Below are positions 28,464-42,924 of a stretch of DNA of 64,000 bases, in pieces. The stretch is from Streptomyces mobaraensis. Lineage in GTDB: Bacteria; Actinomycetota; Actinomycetes; Streptomycetales; Streptomycetaceae. The notes below the pieces were generated by a model, which was not told the origin of the DNA, did not search any database, and worked only from the letters and a program-made list of their open reading frames with translations. Made by a program: the position numbers and the translations under genes. The stretch covers positions 7,192,001 to 7,256,000 of the forward strand of contig NZ_CP083590.1 of the NCBI RefSeq assembly GCF_020099395.1, read 5' to 3'. Position 1 is the first letter of the stretch. Each line of letters begins with the position of its first letter.

Positions 28464-28703
28464 TCAGCCGGCCGTGACCTCGAGGAAGTAGTCGTAGACG
28501 GCCGGGTCGAAGGCGAGACCGGCCGTCCGCTCCAGCACCGCCATGTGCCCGGCGTCCATGGGGTAGACGTCCACGAACCGCTCGACCGGGATCCCGAACA
28601 GCCCGGCCAGGAAAGCCGGGTCCGCGTCCGTCAGCTCCGTCTCGCCCGCGGGGAAGTCGGAGTCCTTCGGGTAGGCGGTGACGGTGTAATGCGTGGAACC
28701 GAT
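28464..28703 (-). CDS. Small DUF7683-like protein with no canonical start codon
   Basis: Reading the minus strand gives 79 protein-like codons ending in TGA: IGSTHYTVTAYPKDSDFPAG, an acidic helix (LTDADPAFLAGLFGIP), VDVYPMDAGHMAVLE and the end AFDPAVYDYFLEVTAG. The composition and the tail resemble short actinobacterial proteins I associate with DUF7683. The frame has no ATG, GTG or TTG upstream of the conserved part. An ATC at 28703 lies nine bases after GGAAAGG, so either ATC is used as a rare start or the gene lost its 5' end. It could be an immunity-type protein, but that is a guess. Confidence 0.45.
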   Translation of the reverse strand: MGSTHYTVTAYPKDSDFPAGETELTDADPAFLAGLFGIPVERFVDVYPMDAGHMAVLERTAGLAFDPAVYDYFLEVTAG

Positions 28704-28785
28704 GGTGCTCGACCTTTCCGATCGTCCGGTGCGCCGCGCCCGGGAGCGCGGCGCACCGCCTGATGTCTCACCAAGGAGATGACGG

Positions 28786-29211
28786 CTAAGCCTCGACCCA
28801 GCCGTGGTTGACGGCCAGGCGGACGAGGCGCTGGCGGACCAGGAGGATCTGCTCCGCCGTCATGGTGGGCGCCGCGCCGAGGAGGAGTTCGGTGACCTCG
28901 TCCGTGAACTCCTTGGCGGACAGCACGTCGCAGTCGCCGTCGTCGCCCGACGGGCCGGGCACGTAACCCTCCGCCGGGACCTCCGCCGGCCGGGCGGACG
29001 CCCGGTCCAGCAGGCGGACGTGGGACGCCTTGAGGCCCCGCTCGCCCTCCTCCACGGAGAACTCGACGAAAGCGCCGGGGACGATCAGGCGCTTGTCCGC
29101 CTGGACGTCGTTGACGTGGACGAACACATCCTCGCCGCCGGTGTCCGGGGCGACGAACCCATACCCCCGGAATTCGTCGAAGCGAATTATCTTACCCGTG
29201 ACCACAGACAT
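28786..29211 (-). CDS. Cold-shock-domain protein with C-terminal extension
   Basis: The 141-residue protein begins with a cold-shock domain (GKIIRFDEFRGYGFVAPD and DVFVHVNDV, the RNP1 and RNP2 motifs) over about 70 residues. The rest is an acidic, helical extension (SAKEFTDEVTELLLGAAPTM). Cold-shock domains bind single-stranded RNA or DNA; the extension distinguishes it from the short CspA type. ATG 29211 is used; a GTG two codons upstream is in frame. Confidence 0.85.
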   Translation of the reverse strand: MSVVTGKIIRFDEFRGYGFVAPDTGGEDVFVHVNDVQADKRLIVPGAFVEFSVEEGERGLKASHVRLLDRASARPAEVPAEGYVPGPSGDDGDCDVLSAKEFTDEVTELLLGAAPTMTAEQILLVRQRLVRLAVNHGWVEA

Positions 29212-29299
29212 TCCCACCTACCACCGCGTGCCAGCAACGGCCCTGTCGCGGGCCCGTCGGGACCTTATCCAGCCGCCGCCGCCCGGCACAATCCCCGGG

Positions 29300-30241
29300 T
29301 CAACACCCCGCCGCCCGGACGTCCACCAGCAGCTTTCCGGACGTCTCCCGGGCGGCGACGGCCTCGTGCGCGCCGGCGACGCCGTCCAGTGGGACGATCC
29401 GGTCGATGTGCGGGACGAGCCGGCCCTCGCCCGCGAGCGCGAGGACCCGGCCGGCCACCTCCGCGAACAGGCCGTCCGCTTCCAGGACTTGCCGCATCCA
29501 CAGCGTCACCACACCGAGCGAGCGCCGGGTGAGCGCGTCGACGGCGACGACGGCCGGTTCCTCGCGGTGGCCGATGGAGACGAGCCGGCCGAAGGGGGCC
29601 AGGGCGGCGAGCGCGGCCTCGACGCGCGGGCCGCCCAGCGAGTCCAGGTAGAGGTCGACGCCGTCCGGGAGCAGCGCCGGCAGCTCCTCGGGATCCCCGG
29701 CCGCGTGGTCCGCGCCGAGCCGGCGGACGAACTCCCGCTTGGCCGGCGACGAGGCCGTTCCCGCGACCACGGACGCCCCGAGGGCGCGGGCCAGTTGCAC
29801 CGCCAGGTGGCCGACCCCGCCGGCGGCGGAGGCGACCGCCACCCGTTCCCCCGCCCGCAGCCGGCCGGCCGTGACCAGGGCGGCGTACGCCGTGCAGCCC
29901 TGCTCGACCAGGGCGGCGCCCGCGCGGTCGTCGATGCCGTCGGGGAGTTCCACGGTGTACGCGTCCCGGGCGACGGCCACCTCCGCGTAGCCGCCCCCGT
30001 CGCGCAGCAGCGCGGCCACCCGCCGGCCGTCCCGCCGCCGGACCCCGACGACCTCCGCGCCGAGGACCGCCGGCAGCCGCGGCGGCTGGTAGACGCCCGC
30101 CCGTACCTCCAGGTCCCCGTAGTTGACGCCCGCCAGCACCACGTCGACGACGGACTCGCCCGGACCGGCGACCGGCTCCGGGAGCTCCGCCGTCTCCAGC
30201 ACCTCGGGGCCGCCGAACCGGCGTATCACCACAGCCCGCAT
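29300..30241 (-). CDS. NADPH:quinone-reductase-like enoyl reductase of the pseudopeptide operon (KtmF-like)
   Basis: The 313-residue protein is a zinc-free medium-chain dehydrogenase/reductase: AGVNYGDLEVRAGVY near residue 37 and the NADPH loop ASAAGGVGHLAVQLARALGA near 145. It ends the six-gene operon, five bases after the amidinotransferase stop. In the ketomemicin pathway a reductase of this family is reported to reduce the alkyl-fumaryl-CoA to the succinyl-CoA used for chain joining. That role is inferred from synteny; on its own the protein could be any quinone or enone reductase. Confidence 0.75.
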   Translation of the reverse strand: MRAVVIRRFGGPEVLETAELPEPVAGPGESVVDVVLAGVNYGDLEVRAGVYQPPRLPAVLGAEVVGVRRRDGRRVAALLRDGGGYAEVAVARDAYTVELPDGIDDRAGAALVEQGCTAYAALVTAGRLRAGERVAVASAAGGVGHLAVQLARALGASVVAGTASSPAKREFVRRLGADHAAGDPEELPALLPDGVDLYLDSLGGPRVEAALAALAPFGRLVSIGHREEPAVVAVDALTRRSLGVVTLWMRQVLEADGLFAEVAGRVLALAGEGRLVPHIDRIVPLDGVAGAHEAVAARETSGKLLVDVRAAGC

Positions 30242-30246
30242 GCCGC

Positions 30247-31413
30247 TCAGCCCTCCAGGTAGTCCTCGGGCGCGGAGCCCTCCCGGACCGTGTCGAGGGT
30301 GAAGCAGTGCAGGCCGCCGCCGAAGAGGCGGCGGTGGCGGTGGCGCACCGGCACCACGGTGAAGCGGTGCTTCTCCAGCGTGCGGATCAGCTCCGGGCAG
30401 GCGGAGTTGACGAGGACGGTGTCGGGGGCGACGGACAGCACGTTGAGGTCGATGTAGCGGCTGGTCAGGAGGAGATCGTCATCGTCGTAGACGGGGAACT
30501 GGTTGTCCTCCGGCTCCGGCGGGAAGATCATGTCCCAGGAGCGGAGCCGCTTGGGCAGCCGCTCGGCGATCTGCGGGGTGCGCACCAGCAGCAGCCCGGG
30601 GCGGAGCGCCAGCACGGTGCTGTCGATGTGGCTGTCGGACAGCGAGTCCAGCCGGTGCACCCGGAAACGCCCCTCCAGGTGGCGCTCCAGCCAGTCGCAG
30701 CCGAGGGCGTGGTTGGCGGTGGAGACGTTGACGAAGACGTCCCGGCCCAGCCGCAGGCACTGCGCGCCGTCGATCATCATCTCGTGCCCGACGTCGTACG
30801 GCGACGGCCGGGGATCGGTGATCGGCTCCATCAGCTCGCCGGGGGCGGTGTGTGCCGTGACGTAGGACAGGTCGAAGGAGGCGTCGGTCATCAGCGGCCG
30901 GGGCATGACCGTCCAGCGTGCGCCGCGCCGGAAGTAGTCGGCGAACACCGGCTTGAGGAGCTGCGTCTCGAAGTAGCGGGCGCGCACCTGCGGGGCCGTC
31001 TCGATGACCTCGTCGCCGAGGACGATGCTGTTGTCGCGGACGTTGAGGGCCGGGATGACGGCGGCCCGGAAGGTGGGCGTGCGGACCTCGATGTGCTCGG
31101 CGAGCGGCGCGGGCCGGTGCACGGTGACGCCGAGGGAGGTGAGGGTGTCGACCATCCCCTCGACGTCCTCCTGGAGCTCCTCGACGTAGCGCTGCTTGAT
31201 GGGGCTCTGCCGGGCCCCGGTGTCGGTGCCGTCCTCGCCGGACGCGTCCTCGCCCGGCGCCCGGTGGCGCGGGTAGTACATGCGGCTGTACGGCATCTCG
31301 TCGTGGAAGAACAGGTCGAAGGACAGCTCCCGCTCGTGGGAGGAGTAGTTCTCGGCCGAGCCGACGACCACTTCACGCAAGGGGGACCAGCTGTCGTAGC
31401 TGTTCAGGGACAT
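30247..31413 (-). CDS. Amidinotransferase of the pseudopeptide operon
   Basis: The 388-residue protein belongs to the arginine:glycine / inosamine-phosphate amidinotransferase family (StrB-like). It begins SLNSYDSWSPLREVVVGSAE as these do, has the SHIDSTV segment with the catalytic His, and GGLHCFTLD with the nucleophilic Cys near residue 370. The enzyme would move the amidino group of arginine to an amine. In this operon the likely product is an N-alpha-amidino amino acid that caps the pseudopeptide through the neighbouring peptide ligase; this follows from the pheganomycin and ketomemicin precedents. The gene starts 14 bp after the ligase stop. Confidence 0.85.
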   Translation of the reverse strand: MSLNSYDSWSPLREVVVGSAENYSSHERELSFDLFFHDEMPYSRMYYPRHRAPGEDASGEDGTDTGARQSPIKQRYVEELQEDVEGMVDTLTSLGVTVHRPAPLAEHIEVRTPTFRAAVIPALNVRDNSIVLGDEVIETAPQVRARYFETQLLKPVFADYFRRGARWTVMPRPLMTDASFDLSYVTAHTAPGELMEPITDPRPSPYDVGHEMMIDGAQCLRLGRDVFVNVSTANHALGCDWLERHLEGRFRVHRLDSLSDSHIDSTVLALRPGLLLVRTPQIAERLPKRLRSWDMIFPPEPEDNQFPVYDDDDLLLTSRYIDLNVLSVAPDTVLVNSACPELIRTLEKHRFTVVPVRHRHRRLFGGGLHCFTLDTVREGSAPEDYLEG

Positions 31414-31427
31414 GCGGCGGCCTTTCG

Positions 31428-32747
31428 TCAGGAGGCGGGGGCGGAGGCGGGCTCGGCGGCGAGCGCGGGGAGGGAGCGCCGCACGGCGTGGGCGGCGGGC
31501 CGGTCGGGGGCGATCACACAGGGGACCACCGTGCCGTCCACCGGGACGCGGTCGCCGACGAGGACGACGCCCGTGCGCGTCGCGGGATCGAAGGCGAGCC
31601 CGGCCCGCTCCAGCGCGTCGAGGGCCGCGCCGAAGGAGGGGACCCGCCAGGCGCCCTTCTCCAGGAACACCCGCCGGGACCGCAGGGGTTCGCCCACCAG
31701 CCGTGCCGCGAGCACGGAGTGCAGGTGCGACGAGCCGGTGAGCCGGCCGTTGGCCTCGGTGAACAGCAGCTCCCCCGCGGGGGTGACGATCGCGTCGGCG
31801 CTGAGCGTCCCCCGGTAGCCGAGGGCGTGGTACGCCTCGCACAGCCGCCGCCCGTCCCCGACCAGCCGGTCCAGCAGGTCCGGCGGCAGGGCGGCGGGCA
31901 CGGTCTCGCCGTCCAGCATCGGGTCCATCAGCATCTCGCCGTGGCCCGACAGCACGACCCCGGCGTCACCGATCTCGAACTCGGCGTACACGGGAACGGA
32001 CTCGGGGTGGTACCGCTCGACGACCACGGGGTGCCGCCCGCCGGACGACAGCCCGGACCAGTGCCGGGCCGTGTGCTCCCGGGCGGCGTCCGGCCCGGGG
32101 AGGACGACGGCGCGGTGCGCCCCCAGGGGACGGACGGCCGGATCGGTGGTGAGGACCTCGTTGCCGAGGCCGCCCGAGTGGAACGCCACCTTGAGGACGG
32201 CGGAGTGCCCGGCGGCGAGCAGCTCCGCGGCCGCGGCACCCGCCGCGTCCGGGGTGCCGGCCACCGCACCGGCGGCGACGGGCGTCCCGGTGCCCGCCGC
32301 CACCGCGCGGAAGGCGGCCTTGCTGTTGACCAGGGCGCTGCCGCCCTGGGCATGGAACGCCCAGCCGGGCAGCGCCCGTTCGGCGCCCAGCCGCCGGACG
32401 AGGTCCGTGACGCCGGTGTCGGCGTATACCGGCAGCACCCGGTCGACGGTCCGGCCGGCCAGGGCGGCGCGGACGGCCGCGACCGTCGCGTCCGGCAGGG
32501 TGCCGGTGGGCGGGAGGGCGGCGGTGACGACGGTGAGCGTGGCGCGGCGGGTGCCGGTGAGGCCGGTGACGTGGTCGGCGAAGGCGTCGTCGGGCGCCTC
32601 CGGGAGCAGCAGGACGTCGCCGTCCCGGGCCCACCACAGCAGCCGCTGGGCGCCCCGGGCCGCCCGCCGCCGCTCGTCCGGGGTGCTGCCGTCCGGGCCG
32701 CCGGCCATCTCGGCGGCCCGGTTGTTGCCGATCAGGAGCGCCGTCAT
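31428..32747 (-). CDS. PGM1-like ATP-grasp peptide ligase
   Basis: The 439-residue protein begins MTALLIGNNRAAEM, the pre-ATP-grasp domain start of PGM1-related ligases. ATP-grasp features follow: ALVNSKAAFRAV, SAVLKVAFHSGGLGNEV (ATP lysine and glycine loop), VVVERYHPES and the metal-binding LLFTEANGRLTGSSH. PGM1 joins a guanidino-acid cap to peptides in pheganomycin biosynthesis, and orthologues build other pseudopeptides. The four-base overlap with the MaoC-type gene (ATGA) shows it belongs to the operon. Its substrates here are inferred to be the amidino amino acid and the ketomethylene dipeptide. Confidence 0.85.
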   Translation of the reverse strand: MTALLIGNNRAAEMAGGPDGSTPDERRRAARGAQRLLWWARDGDVLLLPEAPDDAFADHVTGLTGTRRATLTVVTAALPPTGTLPDATVAAVRAALAGRTVDRVLPVYADTGVTDLVRRLGAERALPGWAFHAQGGSALVNSKAAFRAVAAGTGTPVAAGAVAGTPDAAGAAAAELLAAGHSAVLKVAFHSGGLGNEVLTTDPAVRPLGAHRAVVLPGPDAAREHTARHWSGLSSGGRHPVVVERYHPESVPVYAEFEIGDAGVVLSGHGEMLMDPMLDGETVPAALPPDLLDRLVGDGRRLCEAYHALGYRGTLSADAIVTPAGELLFTEANGRLTGSSHLHSVLAARLVGEPLRSRRVFLEKGAWRVPSFGAALDALERAGLAFDPATRTGVVLVGDRVPVDGTVVPCVIAPDRPAAHAVRRSLPALAAEPASAPAS

Positions 32748-33292
32748 CCGTTCCCCCGCCCCGCGGCGTCCGGACCGCCGGGCTCGGGGTCGCGGCAGGG
32801 CACCAGGAAGCTGCGCTCGAAGACGAGCACGACCTCGCCGGTGGACTTGGTGCCGGTGGTCCGGCAGGAGACGATGCCCTCGCCGGGGCGGCTGCGGGAG
32901 AGCCGTTTGCCGAGGATCTCGGTGCTGGCGTAGAGGGTGTCGCCGGTGAACACCGGGTTGGGCAGCCGGATGCGGTCCCAGCCCAGGTTGGCCAGGGCCT
33001 TGCCGCTGGTGCTGCGGGCCGTCATGCCGCCGACGATGCTCAGGGTGACCAGGCTGGAGACCAGCGGCCGGCCCCAGGGGGTGTCCGCGCAGAACGCGGC
33101 GTCGATGTGCAGGGGGGCGTCGTTCATCGACAGCGTGCTCATGAGGACGTTGTCCATCTCGGTGATGGTCCGGCCGGGCCGGTGCTCGATCACGTCGCCG
33201 ACGGTGAACTCCTCGTACAGGAAGCCCACCACTTCCCGGTAGTGCTGCGGTCCCAGCCGCTCGTAGCCGCTGGGCGGGGCGTCGTCCGCCAT
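32744..33292 (-). CDS. MaoC-type dehydratase of the pseudopeptide operon (KtmC-like)
   Basis: The 182-residue protein has the hot-dog fold pattern of MaoC-like hydratases: GRTITEMDNVLMSTLSMND with the D/N-H type catalytic region, and GRPLVSSLVTLSIVGGM. The related mesaconyl-CoA hydratases act on malyl-type CoA esters, which fits dehydration of an alkylmalyl-CoA to an alkylfumaryl-CoA in the ketomemicin route. It overlaps the ligase gene by four bases and follows the PLP-enzyme gene by 19 bp. Confidence 0.8.
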   Translation of the reverse strand: MADDAPPSGYERLGPQHYREVVGFLYEEFTVGDVIEHRPGRTITEMDNVLMSTLSMNDAPLHIDAAFCADTPWGRPLVSSLVTLSIVGGMTARSTSGKALANLGWDRIRLPNPVFTGDTLYASTEILGKRLSRSRPGEGIVSCRTTGTKSTGEVVLVFERSFLVPCRDPEPGGPDAAGRGNG

Positions 33293-33311
33293 GGATCCGT
33301 ACCGTCCGTTC

Positions 33312-34565
33312 TCAGTGCGTGGGGGAGGTGGGGGAGAGGTCCTTGATGTGGCCGATGAATTCGTCGAGCTTCTCCCGGGACAGATCGGCGCGGATCATGA
33401 TGCGCAGGCCCGCCTCGCCCTTGGGGACGATGGGGAAGAAGACCGCCGAGCAGTAGAAGCCGCGCTGGAACATGTCGGCGGAGAGCTTGACGGCCGCCTC
33501 CGGGTCGCCGACGGTGATGCGGCGCACGGGAAGGCCGTTTCCGGCGAAGGCGGTGGGGAAGGCGGCGTCGAAGTAGGCGATGTTCTCCTGGAGTCTGCGC
33601 TGGAGTTCCGCGAGTTCGGGGGAGCGGTGGATGGCGGCCGAGGCGAGGGAGGCCCCGACGACCGGGAAGGAGATGTTCTGCGACCAGCCGACCGGGCCGG
33701 CATGCCGGTGCAGGAACTCGAACTTCTCCCGGCTGCCCAGCATCGCGATGCCGCCGGCGGTGCCGAACGCCTTGCCCAGACTGGCGGTGATGACGGTCAG
33801 CTCGTTCATCTCCAGCTGCGAGCGGGCGAAACCCTCGCCGTGCTCGCCGAGGATGGAGAGCGAGTGCGAGTCGTCCAGATAGAGGAAGAGGCCGTACCGC
33901 TCCTGGAGCCGCCGCAGCCCGTCCAGGGCCGCCGCGCCGCCCATGGAGTAGGCGCCGTCGGCGACGTAGGCGACCCGCGGATACGTCCGGCAGATCTCCT
34001 CCAGCCGGTCGAGGTCGTTGTGGTCACAGGTGAGGACGAGGCTCTCGTCACCGCAGACGGGCTTCATGTACGACATGCAGAAGTGGCAGAACCGGTCGAA
34101 GACCATCACGCGCGGCTGTCCGTCGGACAGATGGCCCGAGGCGATCAGCGGCAGGATGCCGGCGGTGAGCGCGCTGCACGAGGCGCCGGGCAGGGCGTGG
34201 CAGCCGAAGAGGTCGCCGAGCTCCTCCTCCAGCCGGGCCAGCAGCCGGTGCCGGACCCGGGTGGTCGGCATCACCAGGGAGGTGGCGCCGGTCTCCCGGA
34301 GCGCCTCGATCGCGCCCTCCACCACGGCGGGGTGATGGTTGAGGCCCAGGTACGAGCAGGAGCACATGTTGACGAACTCGTGCCCGTCCGGGGTGACGAG
34401 CCGGTTGTTCGCGTCGGGGGAGTCGGCCACGACGCCGATCAGCCCGGCCTGCGCGGCACCCAGCCACGCCGGGTCGGCCGTACGGATCATAGTGGCGCTG
34501 TTGCGGTAGCGGTGCGGTCCGGTGATGTCCGTGAGGTTCGGGGGGTTTGACGGGGTGTCGTTCAC
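33312..34565 (-). CDS. AONS-like PLP-dependent C-C bond-forming enzyme (KtmB-like)
   Basis: The 417-residue protein is an alpha-oxoamine synthase (5-aminolevulinate / 8-amino-7-oxononanoate synthase / glycine C-acetyltransferase family). Visible motifs are CSCSYLGLNHHPAVVEGA, VAYVADGAYSMGG, LYLDDSHSLSILGEHGEG and the PLP lysine in ITASLGKAFGTAGG near residue 260. Such enzymes condense an amino acid with an acyl-CoA and lose CO2. In the ketomemicin pathway the homologue joins a succinyl-type CoA with arginine to form the ketomethylene link. The GTG start overlaps the upstream stop by four bases. Confidence 0.85.
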   Translation of the reverse strand: MNDTPSNPPNLTDITGPHRYRNSATMIRTADPAWLGAAQAGLIGVVADSPDANNRLVTPDGHEFVNMCSCSYLGLNHHPAVVEGAIEALRETGATSLVMPTTRVRHRLLARLEEELGDLFGCHALPGASCSALTAGILPLIASGHLSDGQPRVMVFDRFCHFCMSYMKPVCGDESLVLTCDHNDLDRLEEICRTYPRVAYVADGAYSMGGAAALDGLRRLQERYGLFLYLDDSHSLSILGEHGEGFARSQLEMNELTVITASLGKAFGTAGGIAMLGSREKFEFLHRHAGPVGWSQNISFPVVGASLASAAIHRSPELAELQRRLQENIAYFDAAFPTAFAGNGLPVRRITVGDPEAAVKLSADMFQRGFYCSAVFFPIVPKGEAGLRIMIRADLSREKLDEFIGHIKDLSPTSPTH

Positions 34566-35533
34566 TGTTCCCTCTCCTGCGTGGCGGTGGTGGCGCGCGG
34601 GGCGTCGGGGTACGGGTGGGGCGCGGCCGGGGTCTGGTGCAGCGGGGCCGCGGGTCTTGGGGGTGGCGCGGAGGGTCCTGACGGCCCCGGGAGTCCGTCG
34701 CCGAACTCCTCGACCAGCCGCTGCGACGCCTCGAAGAACGGGATGCCGACCATCACGCCGTCGACCACGGTGATGTCCCGGCCGTTCTCCCGCCCGGCGG
34801 CGACGATCCGGCGGGCGCGGCCGAGCGTGTCGTCGTCCGGCGAGAACGCCTCGTTGATCAACGGCACTTGGCGGGGGTGCACGGCGATCTTGCCGCTGAA
34901 GCCCATGTCCTTGGCGAGGGCCGCCTCGCAGCGCAGCGCGCCGTCGTCGCGCACCTCGAAGAAGGGCGCGTCCATCACCTCGACCCCGGCCGCCCGCGCG
35001 CTGTTGACCAGCACGCCGCGCGCGTAGGCCAGGGCGTCCCAGGTGAGCCGGGCGCCGGTGGCGAACGCGTAGTCGGCCGAACCGAAGACCAGGGCCCGCA
35101 GCCTGCGGGAGGACGCGGCGATGGCGGGCGCGTGCTGGAGGCCGCGCGGCGTCTCGACGACGGCGATGAACTCGGTGTCCGGGCACTCCGGGCCCAGCAC
35201 GTGCTCCACGATCTCGACGTCGCGGCGCGACTCCACCATGGGTATCAGGACGAGCGGCGGTTTGACCGCGTACTGGCGCAGGGCCAGCAGGTCGCGCAGG
35301 CCGTCCGGCCCGCTGATGGTGTTGATGCGCACCGCGCAGCGGGTGGCGGCGGCGGTGGGCAGGGTGAAGAAGCCTTCGGCCCGTCTGCGCGCCTCCTCCT
35401 TCCGCGCCGGCGGAACGGAGTCCTCCAGATCGACCATGGAGATGTCGGCCCCCGAGCGGTGGCCGGCGGTGTAGCGATGGACGGCGGTGGCGGGGGTGGA
35501 CAGCAGGGACCGGCAGTACCGCGAGTACTTCAT
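34562..35533 (-). CDS. HpcH/HpaI (citrate lyase beta-like) C-C enzyme starting the pseudopeptide operon (KtmA-like)
   Basis: The 323-residue protein belongs to the CitE / malyl-CoA lyase family: YCRSLLSTPATAVHRY, ISMVDLEDSVPPARKEEAR (metal-binding Glu/Asp), VRINTISGPDG, VVETPRGLQHAPAIA and GFSGKIAVHPRQV. In the ketomemicin route a member of this family condenses a 2-oxo acid such as phenylpyruvate with malonyl-CoA to give an alkylmalyl-CoA. A Pro-rich tail of about 45 residues (PPPRPAAPLHQTPAAPHPYP) extends beyond the usual end. GGAG precedes the ATG. It is the first gene of the operon. Confidence 0.85.
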   Translation of the reverse strand: MKYSRYCRSLLSTPATAVHRYTAGHRSGADISMVDLEDSVPPARKEEARRRAEGFFTLPTAAATRCAVRINTISGPDGLRDLLALRQYAVKPPLVLIPMVESRRDVEIVEHVLGPECPDTEFIAVVETPRGLQHAPAIAASSRRLRALVFGSADYAFATGARLTWDALAYARGVLVNSARAAGVEVMDAPFFEVRDDGALRCEAALAKDMGFSGKIAVHPRQVPLINEAFSPDDDTLGRARRIVAAGRENGRDITVVDGVMVGIPFFEASQRLVEEFGDGLPGPSGPSAPPPRPAAPLHQTPAAPHPYPDAPRATTATQEREQ

Positions 35534-35645
35534 GGGATCTCCGACGAGGGCCGGCGGAAGAGAGCAGGGCGCGGTGGCGTCGTGATCCGCCCCCGCGGTT
35601 CCATGCCTACCGCACCCGGGCTGTTCGAGACCGCTTCGCGTGCCG

Positions 35646-35676
35646 CGAACAAGCAACTCCGAACAACGCCGAACAA
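35646..35676 (+). repeat. Three direct CGAACAA repeats upstream of the pseudopeptide operon
   Basis: CGAACAA occurs at 35646-35652, 35660-35666 and 35670-35676. An inverted TGTTCG lies nearer the first gene of the operon at about 35622. The spacing (14 and 10 bp) is roughly helical for the last pair. This could be a binding array for an activator or repressor. Confidence 0.45.
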
Positions 35677-35684
35677 TCGGGATT

Positions 35685-35698
35685 GGTCATTCATGACC
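35685..35698. promoter_or_regulatory. Perfect palindrome in the pseudopeptide operon promoter region
   Basis: GGTCAT-TC-ATGACC is an inverted repeat with 6-bp arms and a 2-bp spacer, 152 bp upstream of the first operon gene. Together with the CGAACAA copies just beside it, it marks this region as a likely control site. Confidence 0.5.
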
Positions 35699-35846
35699 GA
35701 ACTGTCATTGTCGAATTGACGGAAATCATAGTGTTGTTGGCCATTGCCTGGCCGTTACCGTAGGGACCACCGCTATGTTCGGCTCGCTCGCGCCGCCGCC
35801 CCACCCCTAGCCCGGCGCCGTGCGGCACGGCTGGAAAGGCAGGGCA

Positions 35847-37448
35847 GTGGCACGCCGTGAACGGCCCCTGGACCCGGGCGACAGCCCCCTGCTGCGCTTC
35901 GCCGCGGACCTGCGCGCCCTGCGCGAACGGGCGGGCAGCCCCACCTACCGTCAACTCGCCCTCCGCGCCCACTCCTCGGCGGCCAGCCTCTCGGTCGCCG
36001 CGGGCGGCCGCAGGTTCCCGACCCTCGCCGTCACCAGCGCCTACGTCCGCGCCTGCGGCGGCGACGTGGGGGAGTGGGCGGACCGCTGGCACGCCGTGGC
36101 CTCCGCCCTCGCCCGCCGCCGGCCGCCGCCCTACGCCGGCCCCGCCGCGTACACGGCGGCCGACGGCGACCGCTTCTTCGGGCGGGAACGCCTGGTGGAG
36201 GAGGCGGTCGAGCGGTTACGCCGGGACCGGCTCGTCGTCGTCACCGGCGCCTCCGGGGCCGGGACCACCTCGCTCCTCCAGGCCGGCGTCGTCCACCGGC
36301 TCCTCACCGCCGGGGACCCGCCCGCCGTCGGCACGTTCGTCCCGGGGCCCGACCCCGTCGCCGAACTCGCCCGCTGCCTCGCGCGGCTCCCGGACCCCGA
36401 CTCCGTCCTCGTCGTCGACCAGGTGGAACGGCTCCAGGCACAGGGTCCGGCCCCGGCCGGACGCGGCCGTTCCGCCGGCCCGCCGGACCTGCCCGGCCTC
36501 CTGGACGTGCTGCGCGCCGCACCCTGCCGGCTGGTGCTGGGCCTGCGCACCGACCTCCACGACCGGTACGCCCGCCACCCCCTGCTCGTCCGCCCGCCGC
36601 TGACCGTGCCGCCGCCGGCCCCCGAGGACCTCACCCGCGTCGTCACCGAACCGGCCGCCGCGGCCGACTGCACGGTCGAGGACCGGCTGCTCGCCGTCCT
36701 CGTCGCGGGCGCCCACCGGCAGCCCGGCGGCCTCCCCCTGCTCTCCGCCGCCCTCCTCGCCACCTGGCGGCACCGCGACGGCAACCGGCTCACCCTCGCC
36801 GGCTTCCACGCCGCCGGCGGGTTCGAGGGCGCCGTCACCCGGGGCGCCGAGGCGGTCTGGGACGAACTCGCCGACGGCCCGCGGCAGCGCGCCCGCGACA
36901 TCCTGCTCCGCCTGACCGAGACCGGCGACGACGGGGCGCCGCACGCCCTCGACCGCCGCGAACTCGGCGACGACCCCGGCACGGCCGCCGTCCTCGAACG
37001 CCTCGCCGCCGCCCGGGTGCTCATCCTCGACCACGACCGGGCCGTCCTCGCCCACGACGCCGTCGCCCACGGCTGGCCCCGGCTCGCCGCCTGGACGGCC
37101 GAGGACCCGGACGCGCTGCGCCGCCGCCGGCGGCTCACCCGGGCGGCCCGCGCCTGGGAGGAGTCCGGCCGCGACCCGGCGGCGCTCTGGCGCGGCCGCC
37201 GGCTCGCCGAGGCCGAGGCGGAGTCCGCGCCCCCCGCACCCGGCCGCCCGGACGCGGCGTACCCGCCCGGCGACCCGGAGCGGGAGTTCCTCACCGCCTG
37301 CGCGACGGCCGAACGCGCCCGCCGCGTCCAGGACGCGGTCCGCGACGCCCGGCTGCGCGCCCAGCGCCGCCTGATCGCCTTCCTGGCCGGCCTCCTGATC
37401 TCGGTCTCGGCCCTGGCGGCGGCGACGGTTCCGCTCGCGGTGCGCTGA
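35847..37448 (+). CDS. HTH-STAND NTPase-like protein with altered Walker A, C-terminal membrane helix
   Basis: The 533-residue protein has an N-terminal XRE-like helix-turn-helix (TYRQLALRAHSSAASLSVA, about 33-51), the nSTAND1 domain start DRFFGRERLVEEAVERL, and a P-loop written GASGAGTTSLLQAGV, where the usual lysine of GxxGxGKS/T is threonine. The Walker B is VLVVDQVERL. Helical winged regions follow, then a C-terminal hydrophobic helix (IAFLAGLLISVSALAAATVP). Family members usually continue into WD40 repeats, which are missing here. ATP binding is doubtful. The GTG start follows AAAGG. It is divergent from the pseudopeptide operon and might sense or control something there, but this is not shown. 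Confidence 0.75.
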   Translation: MARRERPLDPGDSPLLRFAADLRALRERAGSPTYRQLALRAHSSAASLSVAAGGRRFPTLAVTSAYVRACGGDVGEWADRWHAVASALARRRPPPYAGPAAYTAADGDRFFGRERLVEEAVERLRRDRLVVVTGASGAGTTSLLQAGVVHRLLTAGDPPAVGTFVPGPDPVAELARCLARLPDPDSVLVVDQVERLQAQGPAPAGRGRSAGPPDLPGLLDVLRAAPCRLVLGLRTDLHDRYARHPLLVRPPLTVPPPAPEDLTRVVTEPAAAADCTVEDRLLAVLVAGAHRQPGGLPLLSAALLATWRHRDGNRLTLAGFHAAGGFEGAVTRGAEAVWDELADGPRQRARDILLRLTETGDDGAPHALDRRELGDDPGTAAVLERLAAARVLILDHDRAVLAHDAVAHGWPRLAAWTAEDPDALRRRRRLTRAARAWEESGRDPAALWRGRRLAEAEAESAPPAPGRPDAAYPPGDPEREFLTACATAERARRVQDAVRDARLRAQRRLIAFLAGLLISVSALAAATVPLAVR

Positions 37449-37886
37449 GGGGAGGTCACGGCGGGGCGGGCGGCGGCGCCTACGGTCGCGGTTGCCGACT
37501 GCCCCGCCGCCTACGGCCGTCGTCCGCCGTCGTCCGTCCACGGACCGCGGGCCCGGACGCCGTCCGCCGAACGGGCCCGCGCGTCGGCGGTGGCGGGTGT
37601 CGGCCCGTCGGCCGACCGTCGACGGTGGCCGGTCCCGGTGGCCGGTCTCGGGGGCCGCCGGACGGTCCGTCCCGTCCGGCGCGGGCGCGCCCGGCTTGCC
37701 CGTCGGTCGGCGTGCCGTCGCCCGGCCTGCCTGGTGGTGGCCCTGTTCGTCGCCCGGCCGGCCCAGGGCCGGCCCCCGCTTCCGCCGGTGAGCCGTCACC
37801 GCGCGGCCGCGGCAGGCCCCGCGACCACCCGGGTGGCGTGCCTCACCTCGGGGTCTGCCGCGCGAGTGATCGGGAAAGCGTCTACG
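37449..37886. other. Gap between the STAND-like gene and the FUSC-type gene
   Basis: This 438-bp stretch is GC-rich and contains imperfect GGTGGCCGGT and CCGTCGTCCG repetitions around 37510-37660. All open frames read as Arg/Pro/Gly-rich low-complexity sequence and lack good starts. I see no gene. It may be decayed sequence that once encoded the C-terminal repeats of the STAND protein, but no WD40-like remnant is recognisable. Confidence 0.4.
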
Positions 37887-39113
37887 GTGCGTGATCTTCC
37901 CGAACCCCTGACGACCCTGGTCCGACGCGGCAGAGAGCCCGCGGTCGCGCAGACGGTGCGGTCCACGGCCGCCGCCGTCATCGCGTACGCGGTGGCGCTG
38001 ACGCTCAGCAAGGAACCGGCGCCGCTCACCGCGCCGCTGACCGCCCTGCTCGTCGTCCAGGTGACCCTGTACTCCACCCTGACCACCGGCATCCGCCGGG
38101 TGAACTCCGTCGTCGCGGGCGTCCTGATCGCCATCGGCTTCAGCGTCCTGGTCGGCCTCACCTGGTGGAGCCTGGGACTGATCATCCTGGCGTCACTGGT
38201 CATCGGGCGCTTCGTCCACGTGGGGGAGTTCGTCCCCGAGGTGGCGATCAGTGCCATGCTCGTCCTCGGCGTCACCCGGGTGACGGAGACCGCCTGGGAC
38301 CGGGTCCTGGAGACCCTGATCGGAGCCGTCGTCGGGCTCCTCTTCAACGTGCTGCTCGTACCGCCCGTCTGGGTGGAGCCGGCCGGCGACGCCATCCAGG
38401 ACCTGGCGCGCCGGATAAGCGGACTCCTCCGCCACCTCGGCTCCGAGGTCGGCCGGCCCACCCCCGTCACGGAGGCCGCCGCCCGGCTGCACGAGGCGCG
38501 CCGGCTGGACCACGACGTCGCCGAGGTCGACGTCTCCCTCCGGCAGGCCGAGGACAGCCTCCGGCTCAACCCCCGGGTCAAGGAGGGCCTGCTCTCCCGG
38601 ATCGTGCTGCGCACCGGGCTGGACGCGCTGGAGATCTCCGCCGTCGTGGTCCGGGTGATGTGCCGCTCCCTGACCGACCTGGCGCGCGAGCGCACCGACG
38701 AACCCCTCTTCCCCGAAGAGGTCGCCGCCGCGCTCACCGACGTCATGCACCACCTCGCCCGCGCCCTCGAGAGCTTCGCCGTGCTGATCACCAGCCAGGT
38801 GAGCGCCAACGCCGAGGAGGCCGAGTCCCGGCTGGTCGAGGACCTGGCCATCGGCCGGGAGAGCCGCGACCGGGCCGCCCACCTGCTGCTGGACAAGGTC
38901 CGCGAACACCCCGGACAGTGGCAGCTGCACGGCTCGCTGCTCGCCGAGATCGACCGCATCCTCGACGAACTCGACGTCGAGAAGCGCACCGAGCGGCTGA
39001 CGGAGGAGCTGGACCGGCACTCCCGGGCGTCCCGGGAGCGCTGGCCGCTCCTCCACCGCCTCAGGCGGCGGGTGGTCCGCAGCCGGTTCGGCAGCCGGAG
39101 CACTCGCGCCTGA
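37887..39113 (+). CDS. FUSC / aromatic acid exporter family membrane protein
   Basis: The 408-residue protein has an N-terminal domain with about five to six hydrophobic segments (TAPLTALLVVQVTLYSTLTT, VLIAIGFSVLVGLTWWSLG) and a long helical cytoplasmic C-terminal part. This is the layout of the ArAE_1/FUSC family, whose members export aromatic acids. The GTG start (VRDLPEPLTTLVRRGREP) follows GGGAAAG; a GTG seven codons upstream is also in frame. The cargo is unknown. Confidence 0.75.
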   Translation: MRDLPEPLTTLVRRGREPAVAQTVRSTAAAVIAYAVALTLSKEPAPLTAPLTALLVVQVTLYSTLTTGIRRVNSVVAGVLIAIGFSVLVGLTWWSLGLIILASLVIGRFVHVGEFVPEVAISAMLVLGVTRVTETAWDRVLETLIGAVVGLLFNVLLVPPVWVEPAGDAIQDLARRISGLLRHLGSEVGRPTPVTEAAARLHEARRLDHDVAEVDVSLRQAEDSLRLNPRVKEGLLSRIVLRTGLDALEISAVVVRVMCRSLTDLARERTDEPLFPEEVAAALTDVMHHLARALESFAVLITSQVSANAEEAESRLVEDLAIGRESRDRAAHLLLDKVREHPGQWQLHGSLLAEIDRILDELDVEKRTERLTEELDRHSRASRERWPLLHRLRRRVVRSRFGSRSTRA

Positions 39114-40910: not shown

Positions 40911-41313
40911 GAGCAGTCCCTTTCCTTGAGTCTTCCCCTGAGTTTCACGTGCTGTCATGCTCGCTGCGCCTACCCGTCGCATGCGCCCTCGAACGCGCCG
41001 GAGCGTAGGGAACGCGCCACCCCGGCGGCCGGAATTCCCTTTTCTCTCCGTGGGTTTCCTCATCGTTCCCCCCTGCTTCCCCTCCCGGAAAGACCCGGTC
41101 ATGCCCGGTCGGGCGCCAGGTGGACAGGGCGTTCCGATTCTCTTGGCCCTCTCGGGGGCGGTCAATCGGCGAAATGGAGGGCGCAAGGAGGGAGTTCGGC
41201 CGGGCCGGACATCGGCCCGAAACCGCCGTCGGGCCTCTTGCCTGCCCCAGCGGGCACGTTAGGCTGCCCCGCCACACGTGGTTCAGGCCGGACGAGTTCT
41301 CGGGGGACTCCAG
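40911..41313. other. Divergent region between DUF4232 and M28 peptidase genes
   Basis: This 403-bp spacer shows no supportable gene. It contains the promoter-like element at 41238-41265 and a pyrimidine-rich segment at about 41035-41100. Confidence 0.45.
41238..41265 (+). promoter_or_regulatory. Probable promoter of the M28 peptidase gene
   Basis: TTGCCT (41238-41243) and TAGGCT (41260-41265) are separated by 16 bp. TAGgCT fits the Streptomyces housekeeping -10 consensus. It ends 48 bp before the ATG. Confidence 0.5.
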
Positions 41314-42924
41314 ATGCTCTTGCGACGGATGATGCGACGGACGGCTCGGCGCGCTCTCCAGGGGGCGCCTCCCTCGTTCTCCCCCGAACCGGCCGCCACC
41401 TGTCCCGCCGCCGGCCGCCCGGCGCGCGCCCGGTGGCGCGTGGCCCTGACCCGGGCGCCCTTCCGGACGGCGGCGCCGGCCTGCGCGCTGGCCTGCGCCG
41501 CGCTCCTGGTCGCCACGGCCGCCCCCGCCCCCGGAGCCACTCCCGCGCCGTCCGTGCGGGCGGACGCGGTCCGGGCGGACGCCGAGCGGCTGGCCGGCCG
41601 GCTGGCGTCGGAGGTCACCGCCGCCGGGGCCTGGCGCCACCTGGAGGCGTTCCAGCGCGCGGCCGACGACCACGACGGCGTCCGCGCCGCCGGCACCGCC
41701 GGGTACGACGCCTCGGCGCGGTACGTCACCCGGCGGCTGACCGAGGCCGGCTACCAGGTCCGCGTCCAGCGCTTCTCCTTCCCCGACAGCGTGCCCATGG
41801 CCCAGACCGCCCAGGTCACCGCGCCGGACCCGCGCACCCTGCACCCGCTGCTCGCCCGGTTCTCGCCCGCCACCCCGGACGGCGGATGGCGTGGACGCCT
41901 GGCCGTCCTGCCGGAGAAGGCGTACGGCTGCGACGCCGCCGACTACGCCGGGGACGTCCGCGGCCACGCCGTCCTCGCCCGCGTCGGCGGCTGCGACCTG
42001 GCCCGCAAGACCGAACTGGCCGCCGCGGCCGGTGCCGCCGCCCTGCTGGTGAACGTCGACCAGCAGCCGGCGGACATGAACATCCGCTCCACCGTCCGCC
42101 CGCCCGCCGTCGCCCGCGTCCCCACCGCCAACCTGTCGCGCGGCGAGGCCGAGCGGCTCGCCGCCGACGCCGCCCGCGGACCCGTCGACCTCTTCCTCGA
42201 CCTGCGCGGCCGGGCCGTCACCACCGACTCGTACAACCTCCTCGCCGACACCCCAGCCGGACGCTCCGACCGCACGGTCGTCCTGGGGTCGCACCTGGAC
42301 AGCGCCACCGAGGGCCCCGGCCTCAACGACAACGGCAGCAGCGCGGCCATGGTCCTGGAGACCGCCCTGCGGCTCGCCCCGCACCGTGACCAGGTCCGCA
42401 ACCGGGTGCGCTTCGCCTTCTGGGGCGCCGAGGAGGAGGGCATGGTCGGGTCCGGGTACTACGTCGGGCAGTTGAGCGACCGGGAGCGCCGGGAGACCGC
42501 GCTCGTCCTCAACTTCGAGACCATCGCCTCGCCCAACTACGCCCGTATGGTCTACCACGGCACCGGCGCCGTACCGCCCGGCACCGACACCGTCGAGAAG
42601 GTCTTCACCGACCGCTTCGCCCGGCGCGGACTGCCCACCGTCCCGCTGGAGTTCGACGGCCGGTCCGACTTCGCGCCGTTCATGGCCGCCGGCATCCCCG
42701 CCGGGGGCGGCTCCGCCGGCTACAACCACCTCAAGACCCCCGAATGGCAGCGGCTGTTCGGCGGCACCGCGGGCGAACTCACCGACCCCTGCTACCACCA
42801 GACCTGCGACACGCTCTCCCACCTCGACCGGACCATCCTCGGCCAGTTCGGCGACGCGATGGCCTGGGCGACCGCCCGCTTCGCCGTCGACGTCTCCGAC
42901 GTCGGCACCGCCCGCGGCCGGTGA
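41314..42924 (+). CDS. Secreted M28 family aminopeptidase
   Basis: The 536-residue protein has an exported N-terminus (hydrophobic APACALACAALLVATAAPAP near residue 60), a protease-associated domain insert (about 180-290) and the M28 zinc-site motifs: GSHLDSATEGPGLNDNGSSA with the first His and Asp, and WGAEEEGMVGS with the catalytic Glu pair. A late Asp (DFAPFMAAGIPAGG) and a final His (CDTLSHLD) complete the site. It resembles the S. griseus aminopeptidase but is longer. GGGGGA lies six bases before the ATG. Confidence 0.85.
   Translation: MLLRRMMRRTARRALQGAPPSFSPEPAATCPAAGRPARARWRVALTRAPFRTAAPACALACAALLVATAAPAPGATPAPSVRADAVRADAERLAGRLASEVTAAGAWRHLEAFQRAADDHDGVRAAGTAGYDASARYVTRRLTEAGYQVRVQRFSFPDSVPMAQTAQVTAPDPRTLHPLLARFSPATPDGGWRGRLAVLPEKAYGCDAADYAGDVRGHAVLARVGGCDLARKTELAAAAGAAALLVNVDQQPADMNIRSTVRPPAVARVPTANLSRGEAERLAADAARGPVDLFLDLRGRAVTTDSYNLLADTPAGRSDRTVVLGSHLDSATEGPGLNDNGSSAAMVLETALRLAPHRDQVRNRVRFAFWGAEEEGMVGSGYYVGQLSDRERRETALVLNFETIASPNYARMVYHGTGAVPPGTDTVEKVFTDRFARRGLPTVPLEFDGRSDFAPFMAAGIPAGGGSAGYNHLKTPEWQRLFGGTAGELTDPCYHQTCDTLSHLDRTILGQFGDAMAWATARFAVDVSDVGTARGR

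What the first reader, a model, noticed from the sequence alone, without database searches (positions are those of the whole stretch)
29300..35533. Six-gene operon matching a ketomemicin-type ketomethylene pseudotripeptide pathway
Six minus-strand genes, in transcription order, encode a CitE-like C-C enzyme, an AONS-like PLP enzyme, a MaoC dehydratase, a PGM1-like ATP-grasp ligase, a StrB-like amidinotransferase and an MDR enoyl reductase. Gaps are tiny, with four-base overlaps at the first/second and third/fourth junctions. The same set is described for ketomemicins, where condensation, dehydration, reduction and PLP-dependent joining build a C-C ketomethylene bond in place of a peptide bond. 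The product here may differ in side chains. The Pro-rich tail of the first enzyme is an unusual addition.
Basis: partly seen in the sequence, partly recalled or inferred. Interest (0 to 1): 0.85.

Follow-up and report, generated by a model that had tools for sequence, protein, structure and literature searches.

The report
Ketomemicin-type cluster with likely own switch
A Streptomyces genome carries a complete ketomemicin-type set of six enzyme genes, expected to make a small peptide-like compound in which one peptide bond is replaced by a carbon-carbon link, and beside it lie a regulator gene and a repeated DNA site that look like the set's own on/off switch.

Summary
Six intact minus-strand genes (29300-35533) encode aldolase, PLP acyltransferase, MaoC dehydratase, PGM1-type ligase, amidinotransferase and MDR reductase: the published ktmA-F set. 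A, B, C, D and F match the expressed cluster of Micromonospora sp. ATCC 39149 (64, 72, 76, 47, 55%); the ligase lies in a ktm-only clade (99/99). A ketomemicin-analogue prediction is in print for strain I05A-00742, whose operon is 77-95% identical, so this is a new member of a known kind. Two points go further. KtmE of ktm clusters falls into two far-apart lineages. And a divergent seventh gene (35820-37448, +) encodes an HTH_31-nSTAND1 protein without the WD40 part of its relatives; orthologues stand beside ktmA in 16 of 16 Streptomycetaceae loci with A-D, in 0 of 10 Micromonosporaceae ktm loci, and form one clade (100/100, 13 tested). The shared intergenic region carries TGTTC-N20/21-GAACA-N7..9-GAACA, once in this genome; upstream of A in 14 of 16 loci, and, in 8 loci with a separate D unit, upstream of D in 8 of 8. 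I read this as a dedicated regulator and operator. Product and binding are untested.

The parts
34562..35533 (-). ktmA-like HpcH/HpaI (CitE-like) aldolase, 323 aa, with lineage-variable Pro-rich C-terminal tail
   Evidence: Pfam HpcH_HpaI 105 bits; NCBIfam RipC 215 bits, below its cut-off of 375; 64% to ATCC 39149, 62% to S. tropica-type locus; tail alignment
33312..34565 (-). ktmB-like PLP-dependent alpha-oxoamine synthase, GTG start overlapping A by 4 nt
   Evidence: BioF/Kbl models; 72% to ATCC 39149; lysine of SLGK and DDSHS conserved in 17 of 17 rows
32744..33292 (-). ktmC-like MaoC dehydratase
   Evidence: MaoC 67.8 bits, RipB 184 bits, below its cut-off of 340; 76% to ATCC 39149
31428..32747 (-). 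ktmD-like PGM1-type ATP-grasp peptide ligase, overlaps C by 4 nt
   Evidence: PreAtp-grasp and PGM1_C; PDB 3wvq PGM1 2.4e-90; ktm clade 99/99
30247..31413 (-). ktmE-like amidinotransferase
   Evidence: AGAT and StrB-type solved relatives; Cys, His and Asp of the three motifs conserved in 17 of 17 rows; tree
29300..30241 (-). ktmF-like MDR enoyl reductase
   Evidence: ADH_zinc_N, PIG3-family model below its cut-off; 55% to ATCC 39149
35820..37448 (+). Divergent HTH_31-nSTAND1 protein without WD40 part, probable dedicated regulator; likelier start GTG at 35847
   Evidence: nSTAND1 280.8 bits, HTH_31 28.6 bits against cut-off 27; 13-member clade 100/100; C-terminal hydrophobic stretch; starts
35622..35675 (+). 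Operator-like element: TGTTC at 35622, GAACA at 35647, 35661 and 35671

Best explanation
The operon makes a ketomemicin-type guanidino pseudotripeptide. Inferred chemistry: A joins an aromatic 2-oxo acid (phenylpyruvate or a relative) to acetyl-CoA; C dehydrates the adduct; F reduces it to a benzylsuccinyl-CoA-type thioester; B condenses this with an amino acid, losing CO2, to give the ketomethylene pseudodipeptide; E transfers an amidino group to another amino acid; D joins that guanidino acid to the pseudodipeptide. The divergent HTH-nSTAND1 protein probably switches the operon through the GAACA-repeat element upstream of ktmA. Shown here: gene content, orthology, conserved motifs, linkage of the regulator and conservation of the element. 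Inferred: every chemical step, the product, and binding of the element by the regulator.
For: Set and order; families; identities to ATCC 39149 and to the S. tropica-type locus; D clade 99/99; motifs conserved; purifying selection; published ktmA-F definition; antiSMASH report of a ketomemicin-analogue cluster in I05A-00742, presumably the operon in L004. In NCBIfam A and C score best with RipC and RipB of itaconate degradation, a citramalyl-CoA-type interconversion of which the proposed route would be the benzyl analogue run forwards.
Against: No product data. E is 36% identical to the ATCC 39149 KtmE and of another lineage, so the guanidino-bearing residue cannot be predicted. B by itself also sits among loci that lack D. 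The original ketomemicin papers were not held, and S. mobaraensis could not be compared.
Confidence: 0.87

Rival explanations
1. The operon makes a related but different pseudopeptide, for example with another C-terminal unit or an aryl-glycine-like guanidino cap, because E and D have other substrates than in known ketomemicin producers.
For: E groups with a broad amidinotransferase family that includes a Streptomyces roseoverticillatus protein at 71% (that such a strain makes resorcinomycin is recalled) and not with the ATCC 39149 KtmE. D is only 46-47% identical to ATCC 39149 and the S. tropica-type locus.
Against: A, B and C are 62-76% identical to those loci, and D is in the ktm clade.
Confidence: 0.3
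2. The cluster is decayed or silent and makes nothing.
For: Many ktm clusters in Salinispora are silent or partial (PMC11943689: compounds in 25 of 79 strains with the full set).
Against: All six frames are open, motifs are conserved and dN/dS is low.
Confidence: 0.08
3. The GAACA element is a site for some other regulator, and the nSTAND1 gene is merely a hitchhiking neighbour.
For: Nothing has been shown to bind the site. GAAC resembles half of an actinobacterial LexA box (recalled). Twenty-nine of 49 strict matches in 365 genomes lie outside ktm loci, against 5 for the reversed control pattern.
Against: No GAAC-N4-GTTC in 13 of 13 intergenic regions; the strict element lies in the ktm locus of 13 of 13 genomes known to hold a full set, while 24 of the 352 other genomes have a match anywhere; element and regulator are both absent from 10 of 10 Micromonosporaceae ktm loci and 7 of 7 A-B-C-only loci.
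Confidence: 0.2

Closest known systems
Ketomemicin (ktm) clusters of Micromonospora sp. ATCC 39149, Salinispora, Streptomyces mobaraensis
   Same: Same six enzyme classes; A, B, C, D and F match ATCC 39149 and an S. tropica-type locus
   Different: Order A-B-C-D-E-F against D-F-A-B-C-E (ATCC 39149) and divergent E with D-F-A-B-C (S. tropica type); E of another lineage than in ATCC 39149; adjacent HTH-nSTAND1 gene and element absent from 10 of 10 Micromonosporaceae loci. S. mobaraensis not compared
Streptomyces sp. I05A-00742 ketomemicin-analogue cluster (PMC7317104)
   Same: Same operon, proteins 77-95% identical, same regulator and element; prediction in print, presumably of this operon
   Different: Sequence divergence only, in what was compared
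Streptomyces HTH-nSTAND1-WD40 proteins
   Same: Same HTH and nSTAND1 regions
   Different: The 13 ktm-linked proteins measured are 517-634 aa; the 4 scanned have no propeller family; they form their own clade
PGM1 of pheganomycin biosynthesis
   Same: Same ligase family
   Different: The window's ligase is in a ktm-only clade; PGM1 itself was not in that tree, and no precursor peptide gene was looked for

Membership tests
Ketomemicin (ktm) cluster | Six genes: aldolase, PLP acyltransferase, dehydratase, ATP-grasp ligase, amidinotransferase, dehydrogenase | tested here: met
   definition from PMC11943689
Ketomemicin (ktm) cluster | Enzymes A, B, C, D, F orthologous to an expressed cluster | tested here: met
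   Against ATCC 39149: 64, 72, 76, 47, 55%; D clade 99/99
Ketomemicin (ktm) cluster | KtmE orthologous to that of an expressed cluster | tested here: inconclusive
   36% to ATCC 39149, other lineage; 58% to the S. tropica-type locus, whose row is a long branch in the tree; S. mobaraensis not available
Ketomemicin (ktm) cluster | Presumed catalytic motifs as in the other ktm loci | tested here: met
   17 rows; which residues are catalytic is recalled
Ketomemicin (ktm) cluster | Makes a guanidino ketomethylene pseudotripeptide | not testable with these tools
   needs expression and mass spectrometry
HTH-nSTAND1-WD40 proteins | N-terminal HTH_31 | tested here: met
   window fragment 28.6 bits, cut-off 27; not reported for the whole protein at 0.01
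HTH-nSTAND1-WD40 proteins | nSTAND1 NTPase | tested here: met
   280.8 bits, cut-off 27.1
HTH-nSTAND1-WD40 proteins | C-terminal WD40 propeller | tested here: not met
   No propeller family in 4 of 4 ktm-linked proteins scanned, propeller families in 3 of 3 long relatives scanned
Transcription factor with its own operator | Protein binds the element | not testable with these tools
   conservation only

The most novel reading that the evidence does not exclude
Ketomemicin clusters of Streptomycetaceae are run by a private switch: an HTH-nSTAND1 protein without WD40 sensor and with a hydrophobic tail, which binds TGTTC-N20/21-GAACA-N7..9-GAACA upstream of the ktmA unit and, where it is separate, of the ktmD unit. 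It would be a STAND regulator reduced to DNA-binding and NTPase parts, with a predicted operator and an almost one-cluster regulon, and a handle for waking these clusters.
Probability: 0.75. Interest if true: 0.6.

Novelty: new member of a known kind. Interest (0 to 1): 0.45.

Why it matters
The cluster adds a compact, intact example of an NRPS-free route to ketomethylene pseudopeptides, a structure also used in designed protease inhibitors (PMC11943689). The regulator and element matter more: ktm clusters are often silent (25 of 79 full-set Salinispora strains made compound), and a defined regulator-operator pair would make regulation directly testable in Streptomycetaceae. It also gives a signature for finding further clusters. 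The two lineages of KtmE point to exchange of the capping step between otherwise orthologous pathways.

Tried and rejected
Pro-rich tail as a functional addition: not supported, it varies or is absent among relatives. B phylogeny as a ktm marker: not sufficient, since Actinokineospora A-B-C loci fall among ktm rows (ktm needs 2 changes; quick tree). LexA as owner of the element: no GAAC-N4-GTTC in 13 of 13 regions. Sigma-70 promoter and terminator scans of 28600-37900: 0 and 0 found, which says little in Streptomyces. Structure model of the regulator: pLDDT 68.5, pTM 0.63, HTH stretch partly under 50; Foldseek gives AAA+/STAND ATPases at query TM of about 0.2-0.35 in the 50 rows shown, so the model supports the ATPase class only. 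Text searches for the regulator: 'Streptomyces' + 'nSTAND1' 0 papers, a five-term STAND/WD40 search 0 papers, 'regulator' in PMC11943689 only as 'regulatory control'; these cover open-licence PMC only.

Results against my reading: the strict element is missing upstream of A in L054 (no match to the strict or the loose pattern) and in L159 (first two half-sites only), so 14 of 16. Twenty-nine of 49 strict matches in 365 genomes lie outside ktm loci, against 5 for the reversed control pattern, so the motif is not exclusive to ktm. Two long nSTAND1 relatives (L193, L194) of 15 examined carry a TGTTC/GAACA pair with the same 26-base step upstream, which may mean that the HTH family, not only this clade, reads such pairs. 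Sequence identity between the window's regulator and ktm-linked ones of other genera (43-52% by the method used) is hardly higher than to unlinked relatives (up to 47% over most of the length), so linkage rests on the tree and on position. Short open frames outside ktm loci: 506 aa (G001, not looked into), 503 and 681 aa (G790, G073; both loci run into a contig end). L107 has a broken ktm set (A and B in two pieces, F partial, D and E not found) and is counted among the 10 Micromonosporaceae loci.

Rows not read: of 28 places in 27 genomes I fetched 20 (the rest B 43-46%, and the window's own); of 16 genomes I fetched 12 (the rest are L006 itself and three at B 45-46%); of 23 genomes I read 13 with full sets (window and L004 included) and the A-B-C-type loci of G935, G956 and G066, not G787, G969, G1036, G739, G764, G872 and G878 (B 50-51%), nor the second place in G919.
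Full report
OBSERVATION. The window lies at G000:C1:7192001-7256000 of a 7.67-Mb genome. Family scans identify HpcH/HpaI aldolase, alpha-oxoamine synthase, MaoC dehydratase, PGM1-type ATP-grasp ligase, amidinotransferase and MDR reductase.

IDENTITY. PMC11943689 (parts 1 and 2 of 4 read, plus passages) defines ktmA-F with the same six functions and reports 28 non-Salinispora Actinomycetota with the set, in four synteny versions. A genome scan with B found 22 loci. In L006, Micromonospora sp. ATCC 39149, whose cluster was expressed by others, all six are present with A 64, B 72, C 76, D 47, E 36 and F 55% identity, in the order D-F-A-B-C-E. The window's own order recurs in L053, L003 (S. huiliensis), L004 (Streptomyces sp. 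I05A-00742) and L154-L156 of a sister genus. For I05A-00742 an antiSMASH-predicted ketomemicin-analogue cluster is in print (PMC7317104, whole text); the paper gives no place, but L004 is the one such operon I know of in that genome. So the cluster is a new member of a known kind.

PHYLOGENY. D: 21 ktm proteins form one clade, 99/99, against 25 other PGM1-like proteins; some of the latter are long branches. B: ktm proteins are not a clean clade, because A-B-C-only loci (Actinokineospora) fall among them (quick tree). E: the tree of 52 rows puts ktm amidinotransferases in two far-apart lineages, one with Micromonospora- and Kitasatospora-type loci (13 rows), one with the window, L053, L003, L004, L154-L156 and L104 (8 rows); inside the second, database proteins intermingle, and L104 is a long branch whose exact place is unsure. 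Since D of L104 stands next to D of ATCC 39149 (97/99) while E does not, E has probably been exchanged at least once.

INTEGRITY. The presumed catalytic residues (recalled) are the same in all 17 rows compared, with changes beside them. One point is odd: MaoC-type hydratases usually have D-x4-H (recalled), while all 17 KtmC rows read N-x4-H, so this is shared with the expressed cluster and not a defect of the window. dN/dS is 0.08-0.33 against L053 and L003, 0.14-0.50 against L004 and 0.30-0.57 against L156.

CHEMISTRY (inferred). A and C resemble RipC and RipB of itaconate degradation, both below the models' cut-offs. This fits a benzyl version of the citramalyl-CoA interconversion run forwards: aromatic 2-oxo acid plus acetyl-CoA, then dehydration, then reduction by F, to a benzylsuccinyl-CoA-type thioester; B then adds an amino acid with loss of CO2 to give the ketomethylene unit. 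The original assignments (Ogasawara et al. 2016, Kawata et al. 2017) are recalled or seen only as cited by other papers; neither was held.

A SEVENTH GENE. DNA conservation runs past ktmA into a divergent gene even in the sister genus. The gene, 35820-37448 (+), encodes HTH_31 (28.6 bits for the N-terminal piece, cut-off 27) and nSTAND1 (280.8 bits). The DNA match to L154-L156 begins at 35847 in two of three, a GTG with GGAAAGG shortly before it, the likelier start. Of 30 loci searched, 12 have a relative of the protein, all divergent from and next to ktmA; the 18 without are 10 Micromonosporaceae ktm loci and 8 A-B-C-only entries, two of which (L007 and L153) are the same place. Three further Kitasatospora-type loci, L198-L200, also have it. 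With the window this makes 16 of 16 Streptomycetaceae loci with A-D (L054 holds only the start of D). The 13 proteins measured are 517-634 aa long and have a hydrophobic stretch at the end (Kyte-Doolittle maximum 1.7-3.0). Relatives in 61 genomes have open frames of about 830-2290 aa, apart from one of 506, and 3 of 3 scanned carry WD40-type propellers, against 0 of 4 ktm-linked proteins. The 13 ktm-linked proteins are one clade (100/100) against 16 relatives. Three genomes with A-B-C-only loci (G956, G935, G258) have no match at 1e-30.

AN OPERATOR-LIKE ELEMENT. In 13 ktmA-regulator intergenic regions GAACA/TGTTC occurs 51 times against a shuffle mean of 6.5 and a maximum of 15 in 500 shuffles; GAACAA is the most over-represented 6-mer. 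For comparison, 300 bases upstream of A, D and E in the 10 Micromonosporaceae loci hold 8 in 8400 bases. The half-sites keep fixed steps in 22 sites aligned: TGTTC, then GAACA 25 or 26 bases on, then GAACA 12-14 bases on, with a further GAACA 10 bases on in some. In the window they start at 35622, 35647, 35661 and 35671, that is 89-138 bases upstream of ktmA. A looser form of the pattern matches once in the 7.67-Mb genome, here. In the 8 Kitasatospora-type loci ktm is split into A-B-C and D-F units: the strict element stands upstream of D in 8 of 8 and of A in 7 of 8 (in L159 only the first two half-sites match), and nowhere else in those stretches. Over all 16 loci it is upstream of A in 14. 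It is absent from 10 of 10 Micromonosporaceae loci and 7 of 7 A-B-C-only loci. In a search of 365 Streptomycetaceae genomes, 13 of 13 genomes in which I had found full ktm sets match in the ktm locus (20 matches); 24 of the other 352 have a match somewhere; in all, 29 of 49 matches lie outside ktm loci, and the reversed control pattern matches 5 times. In the 13 ktm genomes 2 matches lie elsewhere (G816, G850). I did not check each of the 352 for ktm genes, so some may carry unseen sets.

READING. Fixed spacing, position upstream of the A unit and of the separate D unit, near-absence elsewhere in ktm genomes, and joint presence and absence with the regulator make a dedicated operator the simplest account. 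Whether it activates or represses is open. The WD40 part, which I take to be the sensor in the long relatives, is missing, so the signal, if any, must act through the NTPase, the tail or partners. Binding is not shown.

VERDICT. The finding stands, as a new member of a known family, with a probable private regulator that I found no mention of. That last statement rests only; of the 11 papers I opened 6: one whole, one in half plus passages, four by passages.

Noticed in passing
L056-L061, L067-L071, L108, L109, L010: A, B and C relatives (A 31-42%, B 45-51%, C 50-61%) occur near each other with no D, E or F match in the stretch read, in other neighbourhoods (in L061 near a 2-isopropylmalate-synthase-like gene, an OCD-family gene, an amidase and an MFS transporter), suggesting other ketomethylene or aminoketone products.
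   Followed up: partly
L007/L153, L152, L055, L008, L009, L105, L106: Seven distinct loci with close A-B-C (B 58-66%) but no D; L007/L153 has an E relative about 8 kb away, and L008, L009 and L106 have F. They lack the regulator and the element.
   Followed up: partly
window 32744-33292 and 16 orthologues: KtmC reads N-x4-H where MaoC hydratases usually have D-x4-H (recalled), in 17 of 17 rows; it may bear on how this dehydratase works.
   Followed up: no
L193, L194: Two of 15 HTH-nSTAND1 relatives examined carry a TGTTC/GAACA pair with a 26-base step upstream of their own gene, a step also seen at ktm; the HTH family as a whole may read such pairs.
   Followed up: no
L107: A Micromonosporaceae genome with a broken ktm set: A and B each in two pieces, F partial, D and E not found.
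   Followed up: no
P0283, P0306, P0311, P0312 (protein ids): B relatives at 63% identity carry names from Myxococcus and Archangium, outside Actinomycetota.
   Followed up: no
G000:C1:6812634-6813854 (L097): A second PGM1-like ligase in the window's own genome, 37% identical, outside the ktm clade and a long branch.
   Followed up: no
window 41278-42924 and 37590-39113: A PA-M28 peptidase gene and a FUSC/aromatic acid exporter-like gene near the cluster; the DNA is conserved in L053 and L004 but is not part of the block shared with the sister genus.
   Followed up: no
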